A stretch of 49,349 nt of DNA from Defluviicoccus sp. (GTDB taxonomy: Bacteria > Pseudomonadota > Alphaproteobacteria > MPNO01), in contig JAJDVM010000298.1 in assembly GCA_022826125.1 (NCBI GenBank), forward strand, positions 1 to 49,349, in the 5' to 3' direction. Both the position numbers and the translations under genes were made by a program. Positions 2,921 to 49,349 of the stretch are shown one piece after another. The notes beneath the pieces were generated by a model. It saw nothing but the letters and a program-made list of their open reading frames with translations. It made no database searches and was not told the origin of the DNA. The number at the start of each line of letters is the position of its first letter. The stretch's first letter is position 1.

Positions 2921-3457
2921 ATAGCAAGACCACCCATTATGGAGCCGCCCGTTCGCGAGGAACGCGGCGTCAACCAGGCGATCCGGGCCCAGGCCGTCAG
3001 GGTCGTCGATACCAACGGCACCGTGCTCGGTGTCTTCCCCACCGCCGATGCGATCGAACTTGCCGCCGAACGAGGCCTCGACCTCGTCGAGGTGTCGCCC
3101 AACAGCGACCCGCCCGTGTGCAAGATCCTCGACTACGGCAAGCTCAAATACGAACAGCAGAAGAAGAAGACCGAGGCCCGCAAGAAGCAGAAGACGATCG
3201 AGGTCAAGGAGATCAAGCTCCGCCCGGCGATCGACCGGCACGACTACGACGTCAAGATGCGCTTCATCCGGCGTTTCCTCGACGAGGGCGACAAGGTCAA
3301 GGTCACCATGCGCTTCCGGGGCCGCGAGATGGCGCACCAGGATCTCGGCCTGAAGGTGTTGTTCCGGGTGCGCGACGAACTCGAGGAGCTGGCCAAGGTC
3401 GAGCAGCTGCCCAAGATGGAAGGCCGCCAGATGGTCATGGTGATGGCGCCCAAGTAG
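2921..3457 (+). CDS. infC: Translation initiation factor IF-3, probable AUA start
   Basis: IF-3 binds the 30S subunit, prevents premature 50S joining and checks the start codon. The N-domain (RVNxxIR-like GVNQAIRAQ, then [22 protein letters not shown]), a Lys-rich linker, and the C-domain ([13 protein letters not shown]) are complete. An ATG exists at 2939, but it has no ribosome-binding site at proper distance. GGGAGA (2908-2913) lies 7 bases before an in-frame ATA at 2921, and that start would add the residues ARPPI plus the internal Met, giving an N-terminus (M)[13 protein letters not shown] like alphaproteobacterial IF-3 proteins. The E. coli gene starts with AUU and controls itself through that rare codon, so ATA is preferred here. 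Product 178 residues. The call of the gene is certain; the start is inferred. Confidence 0.93.
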
Positions 3458-3471
3458 CGCCTGCCGTCTTC

Positions 3472-3500
3472 TTGCGCGGGACGGCGCGCGCCGCTATAAC
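3472..3500 (+). promoter_or_regulatory. Likely sigma70-type promoter for rpmI-rplT
   Basis: TTGCGC (3472-3477) and TATAAC (3495-3500) are exactly 17 bases apart, just after the infC stop and 110 bases before rpmI. The -10 box differs from consensus at one base. This would let the two ribosomal protein genes be made independently of infC. Confidence 0.55.
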
Positions 3501-3519
3501 CCGCCGTCTGTTTGGAATC

Positions 3520-3553
3520 GTCCGGCGAGGCGGCCGGACCCGACAGGGTCCGG
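3520..3553 (+). promoter_or_regulatory. rpmI-rplT leader with two mutually exclusive hairpins
   Basis: Bases 3534-3539 (CCGGAC) can pair either upstream with GTCCGG at 3520-3525 or, as part of CCGGACCC (3534-3541), downstream with GGGTCCGG (3546-3553) around the loop GACA. The second stem is a perfect 8-bp hairpin. Both lie within the untranslated leader between the predicted promoter and rpmI. This is the geometry of a regulated leader; L20 autoregulation of this operon is known in E. coli and Bacillus, but a role here is inference. Confidence 0.45.
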
Positions 3554-3609
3554 AACCGCGGGGCATGCCGAGGCGGTTCGCGTTTCCACGTCCCGAGACG
3601 GAGGATGAA

Positions 3610-3807
3610 ATGCCCAAGCTCAAGTCCAAGAGCGGGGCGAAGAAGCGGTTTCGCACGACCGCGACCGGCAAGGTACGGTCCAACTTCGCCTTCAAGCGAC
3701 ACAATCTGCGCAAGCGCACGCAGAAGATGAAGCGCAAGGCGCGCGGGACCCGCATCATGGCGCCGGAAGACGCCCGGATCGTGAAGTCCTACCTGCCCTA
3801 CGCCTGA
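3610..3807 (+). CDS. rpmI: 50S ribosomal protein L35 (bL35)
   Basis: Small basic large-subunit protein of 65 residues, the normal length. It begins [14 protein letters not shown] and carries the family signature with many Lys/Arg and the end [10 protein letters not shown]. Start ATG at 3610 follows GGAGGA with 5 bases between, so the short form is right and the longer upstream reading frame is not used. It is followed after 10 bases by rplT, its usual partner. Confidence 0.97.
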
Positions 3808-3817
3808 GGAGCGCGCC

Positions 3818-4177
3818 ATGGCCAGAGTGAAGCGCGGCGTGACGACACACGCCCGGCACAAAAAGGTTCTCGACCTCGCCGCCGGCTACCGCGAACGCAA
3901 CCGCACCAGCTTCCGCGTCGCGATCGAGCGCGTCGAGAAGGGGCTGCAATACGCCTACCGCGACCGGCGCAACCGCAAGCGCAATTTCCGCGCCCTTTGG
4001 ATCCAGCGCATCAATGCCGGGGCCCGTCAGCACGGCCTCACCTACTCCCAGTTCATGAACGGCATGAAACGGGCGGGAATCGAGGTGGACCGCAAAATGC
4101 TGGCCGATCTCGCGGTGCGTGAGCCCGATGCTTTCAAGGCGATCGTCGAGCAGGCGCAGGCGGCGCTGTCCGACTAG
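3818..4177 (+). CDS. rplT: 50S ribosomal protein L20 (bL20)
   Basis: Large-subunit assembly protein of 119 residues that binds 23S rRNA early in assembly. It begins [18 protein letters not shown] and contains the conserved [20 protein letters not shown] stretch. Its N-terminal tail is highly basic. In well studied bacteria L20 also represses its own operon, which fits the structured leader before rpmI. A GAGG ribosome-binding site lies before the ATG. Confidence 0.98.
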
Positions 4178-4225
4178 GCGGGAAGGGGTCCGCTGCCGGG
4201 CGGGCCGAAACCGGCGGGTCTTGGG

Positions 4226-5299
4226 ATGGACGACCTCGAACAGCTTCGTTCGGATTTACTGACGCGGATCGAGTCCGCCGACCTCGACGCCCTGGAAGGG
4301 CTTCGCGTCGAGACCCTCGGCCGGAGGGGCCGCGTGACCGCGCTGATGAAGGAGCTCGGCGCGCTCGCCCCCGAACAACGGAGGGACGCCGGCCGGGCGC
4401 TCAACGCGCTGAAGACCGCCGTGACCGACGCCATCGACGCCCGCCGGGCGGCGCTCGAAACCGGCGCGCTCGACGCCCGTCTCTCCGGAGAGACGATCGA
4501 TGTCTCGCTGCCGCCGAGGCCCGAGCCCGACGGACGGGTCCATCCCATCAGCCAGGCCATCGAGGAGATCGTGGCGATCTTCTGCCAGATGGGGTTCACG
4601 GTCGCCGAGGGGCCGGATATCGAGGACGATTTTCACAACTTCACGGCGCTGAACATCCCGCCGGAGCATCCGGCGCGGCAGGACCATGACACGTTCTATT
4701 TCGAGGAGGGCGAGGACGGCGAACGGCTGCTGCTCCGGACCCATACCTCGCCGGTCCAGATCCGCACGATGCTCGTCCAGGAGCCTCCCATCCGCATCGT
4801 CGTGCCGGGACGCACCTACCGCGCCGACCACGACGCCACGCACTCGCCGATGTTCCACCAGGTCGAAGGGCTGGTAATCGACGAGGAGACCCATATGGGG
4901 CATCTCAAGGGCTGCCTGATCGAGTTCTGCCGCGCGTTCTTCGGCGTGGACGATCTGCCGGTCCGTTTCCGGCCGAGCTTCTTCCCCTTCACCGAGCCGT
5001 CCGCCGAGGTCGATATCGGCTGCAGCCGGTCCGCCGATGGACTCACGATCGGGGCCGGCGACGGCTGGCTCGAAATCCTCGGTAGCGGGATGGTCCATCC
5101 CAAGGTGCTGGAGAACTGCAACATCGATCCGTCGCGGTACCAGGGCTTCGCCTTCGGCATGGGCGTGGAGCGCGTCGCGATGCTCAAATACGGCATCCCG
5201 GACCTCCGCACCTTCTTCGACTCCGACTTGCGCTGGCTCCGCCATTACGGCTTCCCGGCGCTCGACATGCCCAACGTCGCCGCGGGGTTCGCGCGGTGA
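4226..5299 (+). CDS. pheS: Phenylalanine--tRNA ligase alpha subunit
   Basis: Catalytic subunit of the (alpha beta)2 enzyme that charges tRNA-Phe. The 357-residue protein has the N-terminal coiled-coil tRNA-binding arm (about 1-85) and the class II core with [11 protein letters not shown] (motif 1 region), [12 protein letters not shown] (motif 2 region), [13 protein letters not shown] and the motif 3 region [18 protein letters not shown]. It is joined to pheT by a GTGA stop/start overlap, which supports coupled production of equal subunit amounts. Confidence 0.98.
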
Positions 5300-47219: not shown

Positions 47220-47630
47220 ATGGAGCTACAATTTCCGATAGAATTTCTGGTGTCCGGAACGCCAATTTCTTCTCAGTCCAGGCATGCAAGGTCGCGCGAT
47301 GGCTGGAAGCGGCGCGTAAAGGAAGCGAGTTTCAACGCATTGCCGGAGGATCATTGGGCAACGGACAGGCGAATCGCCGCGACTTTGTTCTTTTTTCCCG
47401 AACGGCCGATGCAGGGAGATGTGGACAATATCGTGAAGCTGGTTCTGGACGCCCTGGCCCGGCATATCTATCTCGACGACCGGCAGGTGGAGCGCGTCGT
47501 CGTCCAGAAGTTCGAACCCGAACACGTGTTTCCGTTCGCCTCTCCGAGCGCCCGGCTGAAAGAGGCGCTCGGTGGAGACAGGCCGATGCTCTATGTGCGA
47601 ATATCCGACGACCCGTTCGAGGAACTCTCG
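47220..47630 (+). pseudogene. RusA-like Holliday junction resolvase, 3' end broken by IS110 element
   Basis: The first 137 codons show a RusA-type resolvase: Asp67-x-Asp69-Asn70 with Lys73 (GDVDNIVKLVLDAL) and the last acidic cluster in YLDDRQV (86-89), matching the three Asp and one Lys of E. coli RusA. After Ser137 the frame runs antisense into the IS, adding about 99 foreign residues to a stop at 47930. Usual length is about 120-150, so the break may be near the natural end and activity may survive. No phage genes surround it. No good ribosome-binding site was seen. Confidence 0.72.
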
Positions 47631-47642
47631 AGTAACTACCGC

Positions 47643-49070
47643 CTACGCCATCGCCATTCGATCTTTGGTCGCCTCTTGGTCTTCGGTAGGCTGGACCAGT
47701 TTGTAGCCGAGGGTTCGGGCCTTGCGATGCAGGTTTGCGAGTGTGCGGTCGATGCGCCGTTTCTCGTAGGCGTCCATCCCCTTTTCGACATATTCCTCTC
47801 CCCGCGTCACCATCAGGTAGATCAGACAGGCGATCTCACGGGCGGTCGCGGTGATCGCGACGGGCGTATCCTTTCGGGCAAGACGCGCCCGATGTCTGGC
47901 GCCGATGAAGGTCTGGCTCCTTCGCGCTGACATAGCCGCCATGCGCAGGGCCTGCCCGACCGGGTTGATCGCCTTGTGCGCCCGGCCCGGTAAAGGCTTG
48001 CCACCGCTGATCCTGGTGCCCGGCGCCACCCCCAGCCAGGAGCAGAAATGCTGGGCGGAAGGAAAGGCGGAGAAGTCCGGGCCGATTTCGGAGGCAATCG
48101 TCAGGGCGGTTCCGGTGCCGATGGTCGGGATTGCGGTCAGGTCGACGCCCATCATGTTGGTCAGGGCCGTGGCCAACGCCTTGTCGTGCAGGGCGCGCTT
48201 TCTGCCTGCGCTGCGGTGTGAAGCGGTATCCGGGGCCGCACCTCCCGCTCCCGGGGGAGGCATTTCGTCGAACGCGCCGTCATCCGCGGAGCTATCCGGC
48301 GGCGTCAGATCGTCGATCTGCTCCGCGATCCGCGCCTCACAGTCCTCGATCTGCCGGTCGAGAAAGTCATATCGCTGCATGGCCTGCTCCAGGGCAAAGA
48401 GATGCTCCTCGCGCCAGGTGCCCTCCAGACTCGCGGCGATCCTGTCCGCGCTGGCCTTGATCTGCCGATGCCGGAACGAAGCCAGGCGCTGCGGGTCGCG
48501 TTCGCCGTCAATGATCGCCCGCAGGATCTTCATGCCGGTCCGCCCCGTGATGTCGGTGAGCACCGAGTCCAGCCTGACATTCATCTCGGTCAGCGCCTTC
48601 TGCATGTGCTGCACGCAGCGCGAGCGGTCCTCGGTCAAGCGCTTCATCTGGCGCACATAGGAGCGAAGCGGGCAGACCGCATCGCCAGGGCGGAAGGCGC
48701 CCCGCAGAAGCCCGTAGGACAGCAACTGCCAGATCCACTGGCAGTCCAGCACGTCGCTCTTGCGACCGGCGATCTGCTTGGTCATCCGGGGCGGCACCAG
48801 AAGTACTTCGAAGCCGGCGCGCTCCAACACCTCGTAGACCGGGATCCAGTAGACCGAAGTCGATTCCATCGCCACCTTCTTCACGCCACACGACGAAAGC
48901 CAGTCCGCCATCGCCTCAAGATCGCGGGTGAAGCCGTCGAACGCCCGGACCGGTTCCGAAGATGTGGCAGGATCGACGGCTACGAAGTGACGATCCTTGC
49001 CGATGTCGATACCGGCGCAGTCCGGGTTCACTACCCTCAAGCGCTGCATCTTCCTGTTCTTGCGTGCCAT
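47643..49070 (-). CDS. IS110-family transposase (DEDD recombinase)
   Basis: RuvC-like DEDD plus serine recombinase of 475 residues. Acidic residues are Asp22 (GIDIGKDRH), Glu69 (AMESTSVYW), Asp106 and Asp109 (KSDVLDCQW). The C-terminal Tnp20 domain has IPTIGTGTALTIASEIG and the nucleophile Ser355 in ISGGK. A Pro-rich linker (about 255-290) joins the two halves. ATG 49070 follows GAGGGG; a TTG 18 bases upstream is possible. The enzyme appears intact. Confidence 0.95.
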   Translation of the reverse strand: MARKNRKMQRLRVVNPDCAGIDIGKDRHFVAVDPATSSEPVRAFDGFTRDLEAMADWLSSCGVKKVAMESTSVYWIPVYEVLERAGFEVLLVPPRMTKQIAGRKSDVLDCQWIWQLLSYGLLRGAFRPGDAVCPLRSYVRQMKRLTEDRSRCVQHMQKALTEMNVRLDSVLTDITGRTGMKILRAIIDGERDPQRLASFRHRQIKASADRIAASLEGTWREEHLFALEQAMQRYDFLDRQIEDCEARIAEQIDDLTPPDSSADDGAFDEMPPPGAGGAAPDTASHRSAGRKRALHDKALATALTNMMGVDLTAIPTIGTGTALTIASEIGPDFSAFPSAQHFCSWLGVAPGTRISGGKPLPGRAHKAINPVGQALRMAAMSARRSQTFIGARHRARLARKDTPVAITATAREIACLIYLMVTRGEEYVEKGMDAYEKRRIDRTLANLHRKARTLGYKLVQPTEDQEATKDRMAMA

Positions 49071-49109
49071 CCGGGCCACCCCTCTCAAGTCACGTTGCGC
49101 TGCGGGCGG

Positions 49110-49290
49110 GGAGAAACCTCACGACAATCCTCAATCTCTCGAACGAGGTCGCGGCGAACCGCGCCATCAGTGACACAAGCCGATCATGGTTCGGGCCATG
49201 CTGTCATACGGGTGCCCAACGGGCACACCAGTGAAAATCGGGCCTCGACTCCCCGACCGCTGACACTTCACGGTGTCGCCGCCGCAGGCA
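49110..49290 (-). ncRNA. Candidate bridge RNA in the IS110 left end
   Basis: The non-coding left end holds four hairpins: CGCGG/CCGCG with a UUCG loop on the minus strand (49150-49163), CATGG/CCATG (49185-49200), GTGCCC/GGGCAC (49212-49226) and GACAC/GTGTC (49262-49277). A long left end before the transposase and a short right end is the layout of IS110-group elements such as IS621, where this region makes a bridge RNA that pairs with donor and target DNA. Limits are approximate and the guide loops were not identified with confidence. Confidence 0.5.
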
Positions 49291-49349
49291 CAACCCCCCG
49301 TTACTCTCGCGACTAAGCCGACGCATCGCGGGGGTGACCGCTGTCATGA

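What the first reader, a model, noticed from the sequence alone, without database searches (positions are those of the whole stretch)
49071..49309. IS110 left end looks like a bridge RNA gene
Seen: 239 non-coding bases before an intact DEDD/Ser transposase, with four hairpins, one with a UUCG loop. Known: IS110-group elements (IS621) encode a bridge RNA there which specifies target and donor DNA. Inferred: this is a new family member with its own guide loops. Short shared words exist between this RNA and the junction (TTCGAGAG, 49137-49144 region, against CTCTCGAG at 47625-47632), but they are too short to assign guides.
Basis: partly seen in the sequence, partly recalled or inferred. Interest (0 to 1): 0.65.

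Follow-up and report, generated by a model that had tools for sequence, protein, structure and literature searches.

The report
Bridge RNA of an IS110 element
The stretch encodes the guide ("bridge") RNA of a jumping gene of the IS110 family: in this and some 25 related elements, one loop of the RNA spells the DNA next to which the element sits and another spells the element's own end, so it is a well-supported new example of a mechanism discovered in 2024.

Summary
The window ends in a complete 1,716-bp IS110-type element (47627-49342, minus strand) with an AG core at both ends (+ strand CT, 49341-49342 and 47625-47626), an intact 475-aa DEDD/Ser recombinase, and a 272-nt left end carrying a structured RNA (about 49102-49260). 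In 16 AG-core relatives, five RNA bases plus AG match the element's own left flank (97% over the five bases; permutation excess 2.53, null maximum 0.72). A second seven-base stretch matches its own right end (100%; 1.88 against 0.77). Ten relatives fetched afterwards as a test gave 7/7 for the target guide in nine and 7/7 for the donor guide in eight. Five helices are supported by compensatory changes. The closest described element is ISPpu9, with the same AG repeat and end layout. One departure: both left guides lie on the 3' side of their loops, the opposite of IS621 and ISEc21 and the order reported for IS1111 seekRNAs. The right target guide is only weakly supported and is poor in this element. 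No right donor guide was found. Expression and activity are untested.

The parts
47627..49342 (-). IS110-type element, 1,716 bp with one core copy
   Evidence: Ends fixed by a 99.4% identical copy with another left flank (L008) and four further copies, and by the reconstructed empty site
47643..49070 (-). tnp, DEDD/Ser recombinase, 475 aa
   Evidence: Pfam hits; phmmer to IS621 8wt6 in both domains, E 2.7e-6; residues D22, E69, D106, D109, S355
49071..49342 (-). Left end, non-coding, 272 nt including the core
49102..49260 (-). Bridge RNA, minimal span enclosed by the outer stem P1
   Evidence: Five helices with compensatory changes; RNA ends inferred, not measured
49341..49342 (-). Core dinucleotide AG, left copy (CT on +)
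47625..47626 (-). Core dinucleotide AG, right copy (CT on +)
49343..49347 (-). Left target ATGAC in the flank
   Evidence: Equals the five RNA bases before AG in the target-binding loop
49201..49207 (-). Left target guide LTG, AUGAC+AG, 3' side of target-binding loop
   Evidence: Covaries with own flank in 16 elements; test set 9/10 exact
49136..49142 (-). Left donor guide LDG, UCGAG+AG, 3' side of donor-binding loop
   Evidence: Covaries with own right end in 15 elements, 100% match; test set 8/10 exact
47627..47631 (-). Left donor TCGAG at the right end of the element
49233..49239 (-). Candidate right target guide (RTG), 5' side of target-binding loop
   Evidence: Register best in both sets, but weak: z about 3.6 pooled, new set alone p 0.13; poor pairing in this element
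49241..49244 (-). Target-loop basal stem, 5' strand GGCC (3' strand 49194-49197)
   Evidence: GC/AU/UA exchanges on both sides
49210..49229 (-). Apical hairpin P2 of the target-binding loop
49186..49192 (-). Donor-loop basal stem, 5' strand GAACCAU (3' strand about 49113-49120)
   Evidence: AU to CG and CG to GC exchanges between the alpha and gamma sets
49144..49169 (-). Apical hairpin P4 of the donor-binding loop, UUCG loop
   Evidence: compensatory changes
49251..49260 (-). Outer stem P1, 5' strand (3' strand 49102-49111)
49300..49306 (-). Subterminal inverted repeat GAGTAAC, left copy
   Evidence: Pairs with GTTACTC at 47630-47636; the repeat changes together to GTTTG/CAAAC in Pseudomonas relatives
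47630..47636 (-). Subterminal inverted repeat GTTACTC, right copy
49265..49293 (-). Promoter-like word TTGTGC-17-TGAAGT just before P1 (tentative)
   Evidence: TTG plus a TGAAGT-like word 17 nt later in six of seven relatives; inferred by eye
47220..47624 (+). Interrupted RusA-like gene, target of the insertion
   Evidence: Pfam RusA 1.6e-9; joining flanks gives EELS-stop overlapping the ATGA start of a tyrosine recombinase

Best explanation
The left end encodes a bridge RNA of about 160 nt, transcribed in the direction of tnp. The recombinase binds it. [quoted passage not shown] Strand exchange at the shared AG core then inserts the element without further duplication. Shown here: element ends, conserved structure, covariation of both left guides with target and donor. 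Inferred from IS621: transcription, binding, circle formation, catalysis. The right half of the target is read weakly if at all; the right donor guide is unassigned.
For: Ends and AG core. Guide-target and guide-donor covariation above all permutations. Test on ten elements fetched afterwards: LTG 7/7 in nine, 6/7 in one; LDG 7/7 in eight, 6/7 in two. Structure: 96.3% and 97.8% of cells paired, 5 and 11 pairs changed on both sides, 0/500 shuffles on percentage paired, both-side changes and covariation score. Conserved G-U pairs in four helices, which would be mismatches in the antisense RNA. Homology to IS621 and ISCro4 recombinases in the PDB. ISPpu9 has the same AG repeat and a 41-nt left and 14-nt right box (PMC8450116).
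Against: No RNA or transposition data for this element. The right target guide matches this element's own right flank poorly. Right donor guide not found. Of the eight plasmid loci read before the test and re-run, L077's donor guide matches 5/7 and L074 lacks the motif; the decayed C301 copy does not match its flank. Rfam has no matching family.
Confidence: 0.93

Rival explanations
1. The stretch is only a structured 5' leader that controls translation of the transposase, as described for ISPpu9, whose 244-nt leader hides the ribosome-binding site and is opened by an antisense RNA, Asr9.
For: ISPpu9, apparently of the same group, has such a leader and a stable antisense RNA (PMC8450116). The fold lies directly upstream of tnp.
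Against: Leader control does not predict that loop bases follow the insertion site and the element's far end, which they do. Conserved G-U pairs favour the sense RNA. Both functions can coexist.
Confidence: 0.05
2. The matches arise because the element carries pieces of its flank inside it, or because ends were misplaced, so that guide and flank are copies of one sequence without function.
For: Guide and flank are short identical words.
Against: A 99.4% identical element sits at another site with the same word next to it. The word keeps the same place in the fold in about 25 elements with more than a dozen different words. The empty site restores two overlapping reading frames.
Confidence: 0.01
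3. Only the target is read by RNA; the donor match reflects protein-recognised end sequence that happens to be similar.
For: Within the alpha set the donor guide shows only three variants (TCGAG, TCAAG, TTGAG).
Against: The match follows across groups: TCGAG, TCAAG, TTGAG, ATGAG, ATAAG, ATAGG, TTAGA, TCAGG, TTGTG, TTAGG.
Confidence: 0.03

Closest known systems
ISPpu9 of Pseudomonas putida KT2440 (IS110 family)
   Same: Published AG direct repeat, a 41-nt conserved box after AG at the left end and a 14-nt box before AG at the right end, a long leader before tnp (PMC8450116). Here the inverted repeat ends 41 nt after the core; the right end has the same layout.
   Different: ISPpu9 targets REP palindromes; here the target is a RusA/recombinase junction. 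Its sequence was not in the collections searched, so no alignment was made; the Pseudomonas loci L016-L027 stand in for it.
IS621 bridge RNA (IS110 group)
   Same: DEDD/Ser recombinase with matches in both domains, RNA in the left end, two guide loops, left guides read the bottom strand and include the core (PMC11208160, PMC11208158).
   Different: Core AG, not CT; recombinase 475 aa, while IS621-branch transposases are given as 315-330 aa (PMC11187229); [quoted passage not shown] right guides weak or unassigned; inverted repeat of seven bases whose left copy starts about 35 nt from the core.
IS1111-group seekRNA (ISEc11, ISPa11, ISKpn4)
   Same: Bottom-strand guide lies 3' of the (here only candidate) top-strand guide (PMC11187229).
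   Different: In IS1111 the RNA lies downstream of tnp; here it lies upstream.
ISEc21 (IS110 family, seekRNA)
   Same: RNA upstream of tnp, two-part target match (PMC11187229).
   Different: The reported order of the two target matches is the reverse.

Membership tests
IS110 family | DEDD RuvC-like N-terminal domain and C-terminal domain with a conserved Ser in G--P----SG | tested here: met
   Pfam PF01548 and PF02371; D22, E69, D106, D109, S355, GVAPGTRISGG
IS110 group | Long left end, short right end, guide RNA upstream of tnp | tested here: met
   Left end 272 nt, right end 16-18 nt after the stop
IS110 group | Dinucleotide core shared by target and both ends, no other duplication | tested here: met
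   AG at both ends in 15-16 elements; the empty site restores two gene ends
Bridge RNA | Conserved structured RNA with two internal loops | tested here: met
Bridge RNA | Left target guide matches own insertion site | tested here: met
Bridge RNA | Left donor guide matches own right end | tested here: met
Bridge RNA | Right target guide pairs with the top strand | tested here: inconclusive
   Best register the same in two sets; new set p 0.13; poor in this element
Bridge RNA | Right donor guide pairs with the start of the left end | tested here: inconclusive
   No diagonal clearly above the permutation null
[quoted passage not shown]
   LTG follows hairpin P2, LDG follows hairpin P4; basal stems supported by compensatory changes
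IS1111 group | Guide RNA downstream of tnp | tested here: not met
   The RNA is upstream
Bridge RNA | RNA is made and bound by the recombinase; circle formed | not testable with these tools
   needs RNA sequencing, binding assays and circle-junction PCR

The most novel reading that the evidence does not exclude
This branch (window element, ISPpu9-like Pseudomonas elements, Burkholderiales and rhizobial relatives) carries a bridge RNA in the IS110 position but with inverted loop topology: bottom-strand guides on the 3' side of both loops, as in IS1111 order, with target choice resting mainly on five bases plus the core. It could be an intermediate between IS110 and IS1111 bridge RNAs. Whether the ISPpu10 drawing in the 2024 paper already shows this could not be checked, as figures are not held.
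Probability: 0.45. Interest if true: 0.55.

Novelty: new member of a known kind. Interest (0 to 1): 0.4.

Why it matters
It gives an IS110 branch with guides that can be read off from sequence alone, including natural reprogramming: close relatives differ in the guide and in the target in step. The inverted loop order and the recombinase of 475 aa make the branch a useful comparison with IS621 and IS1111 for work on programmable recombinases. It also offers a second reading of the ISPpu9 leader as a bridge RNA.

Tried and rejected
Rfam: no family. Viral contigs: no relative. Single-sequence folds of the left end gave long-range structures that differ between copies, so the comparative structure was used. 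RNAalifold on the alpha set proposed a small hairpin AUCGG/CUGAU and one around LDG; dropped because the P4 extension has compensatory support in the gamma set. GGUU near the 3' end was first taken as the right donor guide; it is a stem strand. A same-strand similarity between the left end near the inverted repeat and the donor loop was tested and not supported. One L010 string was mis-extracted and corrected. A covariance model was not built (one attempt failed on string length) because the direct test sufficed.

Full report
Setting. The window is the whole of contig C343 of a 5.87-Mb, 377-contig genome. The last 141 bases are identical to the first 141 of contig C224, which continues the sequence past the window; an overlap of that size is what a k=141 assembly leaves at a junction (inference). 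All coordinates below are window coordinates; the element reads on the minus strand.

The element. The transposase runs from 49070 to 47643 (475 aa), with both IS110 Pfam domains and weak but two-domain similarity to the solved IS621 and ISCro4 recombinases. The active-site pattern D22, E69, D106, D109, S355 is complete. A 99.4% identical copy (L008, another alphaproteobacterial MAG) and copies L009, L010, L012 and L029 share the same ends and differ in flanks. The ends are AG at 49341-49342 and AG at 47625-47626. Joining the flanks with one AG/CT gives a RusA-like frame ending EELS-stop that overlaps the ATGA start of a tyrosine recombinase, a natural gene junction. The element is therefore 1,716 bp, with a 272-nt left end and a right end of 16-18 nt after the stop, which is the IS110-group layout.

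Guides. Sixteen AG-core elements were collected: seven from alphaproteobacterial and similar MAGs, eight from Pseudomonas and Rhodanobacter, one from Colwellia. In every one the left end has a word of five bases plus AG inside the RNA, and the same word (at most one or two mismatches) at the flank boundary. Every RNA column was compared with every flank or end position, against permutations of which RNA goes with which DNA. For the left target the best diagonal had an excess of 2.53 (mean match 0.97), null maximum 0.72; for the right end of the element 1.88 (mean match 1.00), null maximum 0.77. For the right target and the start of the left end nothing exceeded the null. In the window the target guide is AUGAC+AG (49201-49207) and the flank ATGAC+AG (49341-49347).

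Test set. A rule for finding the two guides from the RNA alone was written after reading eight plasmid-borne relatives. It was then applied to ten elements fetched afterwards (L082-L091). The target guide matched the left flank 7/7 in nine and 6/7 in one. The donor guide matched the right end 7/7 in eight and 6/7 in two. Six of these share one target guide (TAAAAAA, next to the A-run of what looks like an IS3-type frameshift site), so they are not ten independent words; L082, L086, L087 and L088 have four different ones. Among the earlier loci L077 and L074 are exceptions.

Structure. Five helices were defined: the outer P1, and a basal stem and an apical hairpin for each of two internal loops. 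In the alpha set 96.3% of cells pair, with five pairs changed on both sides. In the gamma set 97.8% pair, with eleven such pairs. No shuffle of 500 reached either value for percentage paired, both-side changes or covariation score, while the count of further pair types was not above chance; slid versions pair at 28-57%. Between the sets the donor-loop stem GAACCAU/AUGGUUC becomes GCACGGU/ACCGUGU with both sides changed. Conserved G-U pairs mark the sense strand as the structured one. The structure was derived from these sequences, so the slid control leans towards it; the exchanges between the sets suffer less from that. Both left guides follow the apical hairpin, so they lie on the 3' side of their loops. 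In IS621 they lie on the 5' side (PMC11208158), and in ISEc21 the bottom-strand match is also first (PMC11187229). IS1111 seekRNAs have the order seen here.

Right guides. With the loop geometry known, the 5' side of the target loop was tested against the right flank. One register is best in the discovery set (p below 0.001, register chosen on those data) and again best in six new elements (p 0.13 alone; pooled z about 3.6). Related sequences inflate such values. In the window element itself the pairing is poor. No right donor guide was found.

Relation to known elements. ISPpu9 inserts in REP sequences with an AG repeat, has a 41-nt conserved box after AG and a 14-nt box before AG at the other end, and a 244-nt leader (PMC8450116). 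The window element and the Pseudomonas loci show the same layout. Bridge RNAs are already predicted for most IS110-group elements, ISPpu10 among those drawn (PMC11208160). The finding is therefore a new member of a known kind. The inverted loop order is the one point that may be new; I could not see the published drawing.

Noticed in passing
L006 (G000:C128) 3232-4668: A second, 75%-identical IS110 transposase in the same genome, intact frame, left end lost and right end adjoining a group II intron reverse-transcriptase-like frame; the Gammaproteobacteria locus L013 also has such a frame next to it.
   Followed up: partly
L004 (G000:C301), about 1501-1662: A decayed left end with donor guide intact but target guide GTTTC that does not match its flank (GGCAAG); the left end is shortened.
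   Followed up: partly
47220-47624 and L005 126-644: RusA-like gene followed by a short tyrosine recombinase frame (172 aa, ends early), interrupted exactly at their overlapping junction by the element.
   Followed up: partly
L008 2600-2731, L012 2690-2740 and 4390-4410: Targets of the closest relatives are rich in TGTCAT/ATGACA repeats; in L012 ATGTCATGA stands on both sides of the element.
   Followed up: no
L075, L076, L078, L079, L083-L085, L089-L091: A related branch with target guide (U/C)AAAAAA sits at TAAAAAA runs that look like IS3-family frameshift sites, a conserved niche for insertion.
   Followed up: partly
literature, PMC8450116: Orphan ssr9 copies of ISPpu9, flanked by the A and B boxes at non-REP sites, could be mini-elements moved in trans with their own target guide; testable from the KT2440 sequence.
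   Followed up: no
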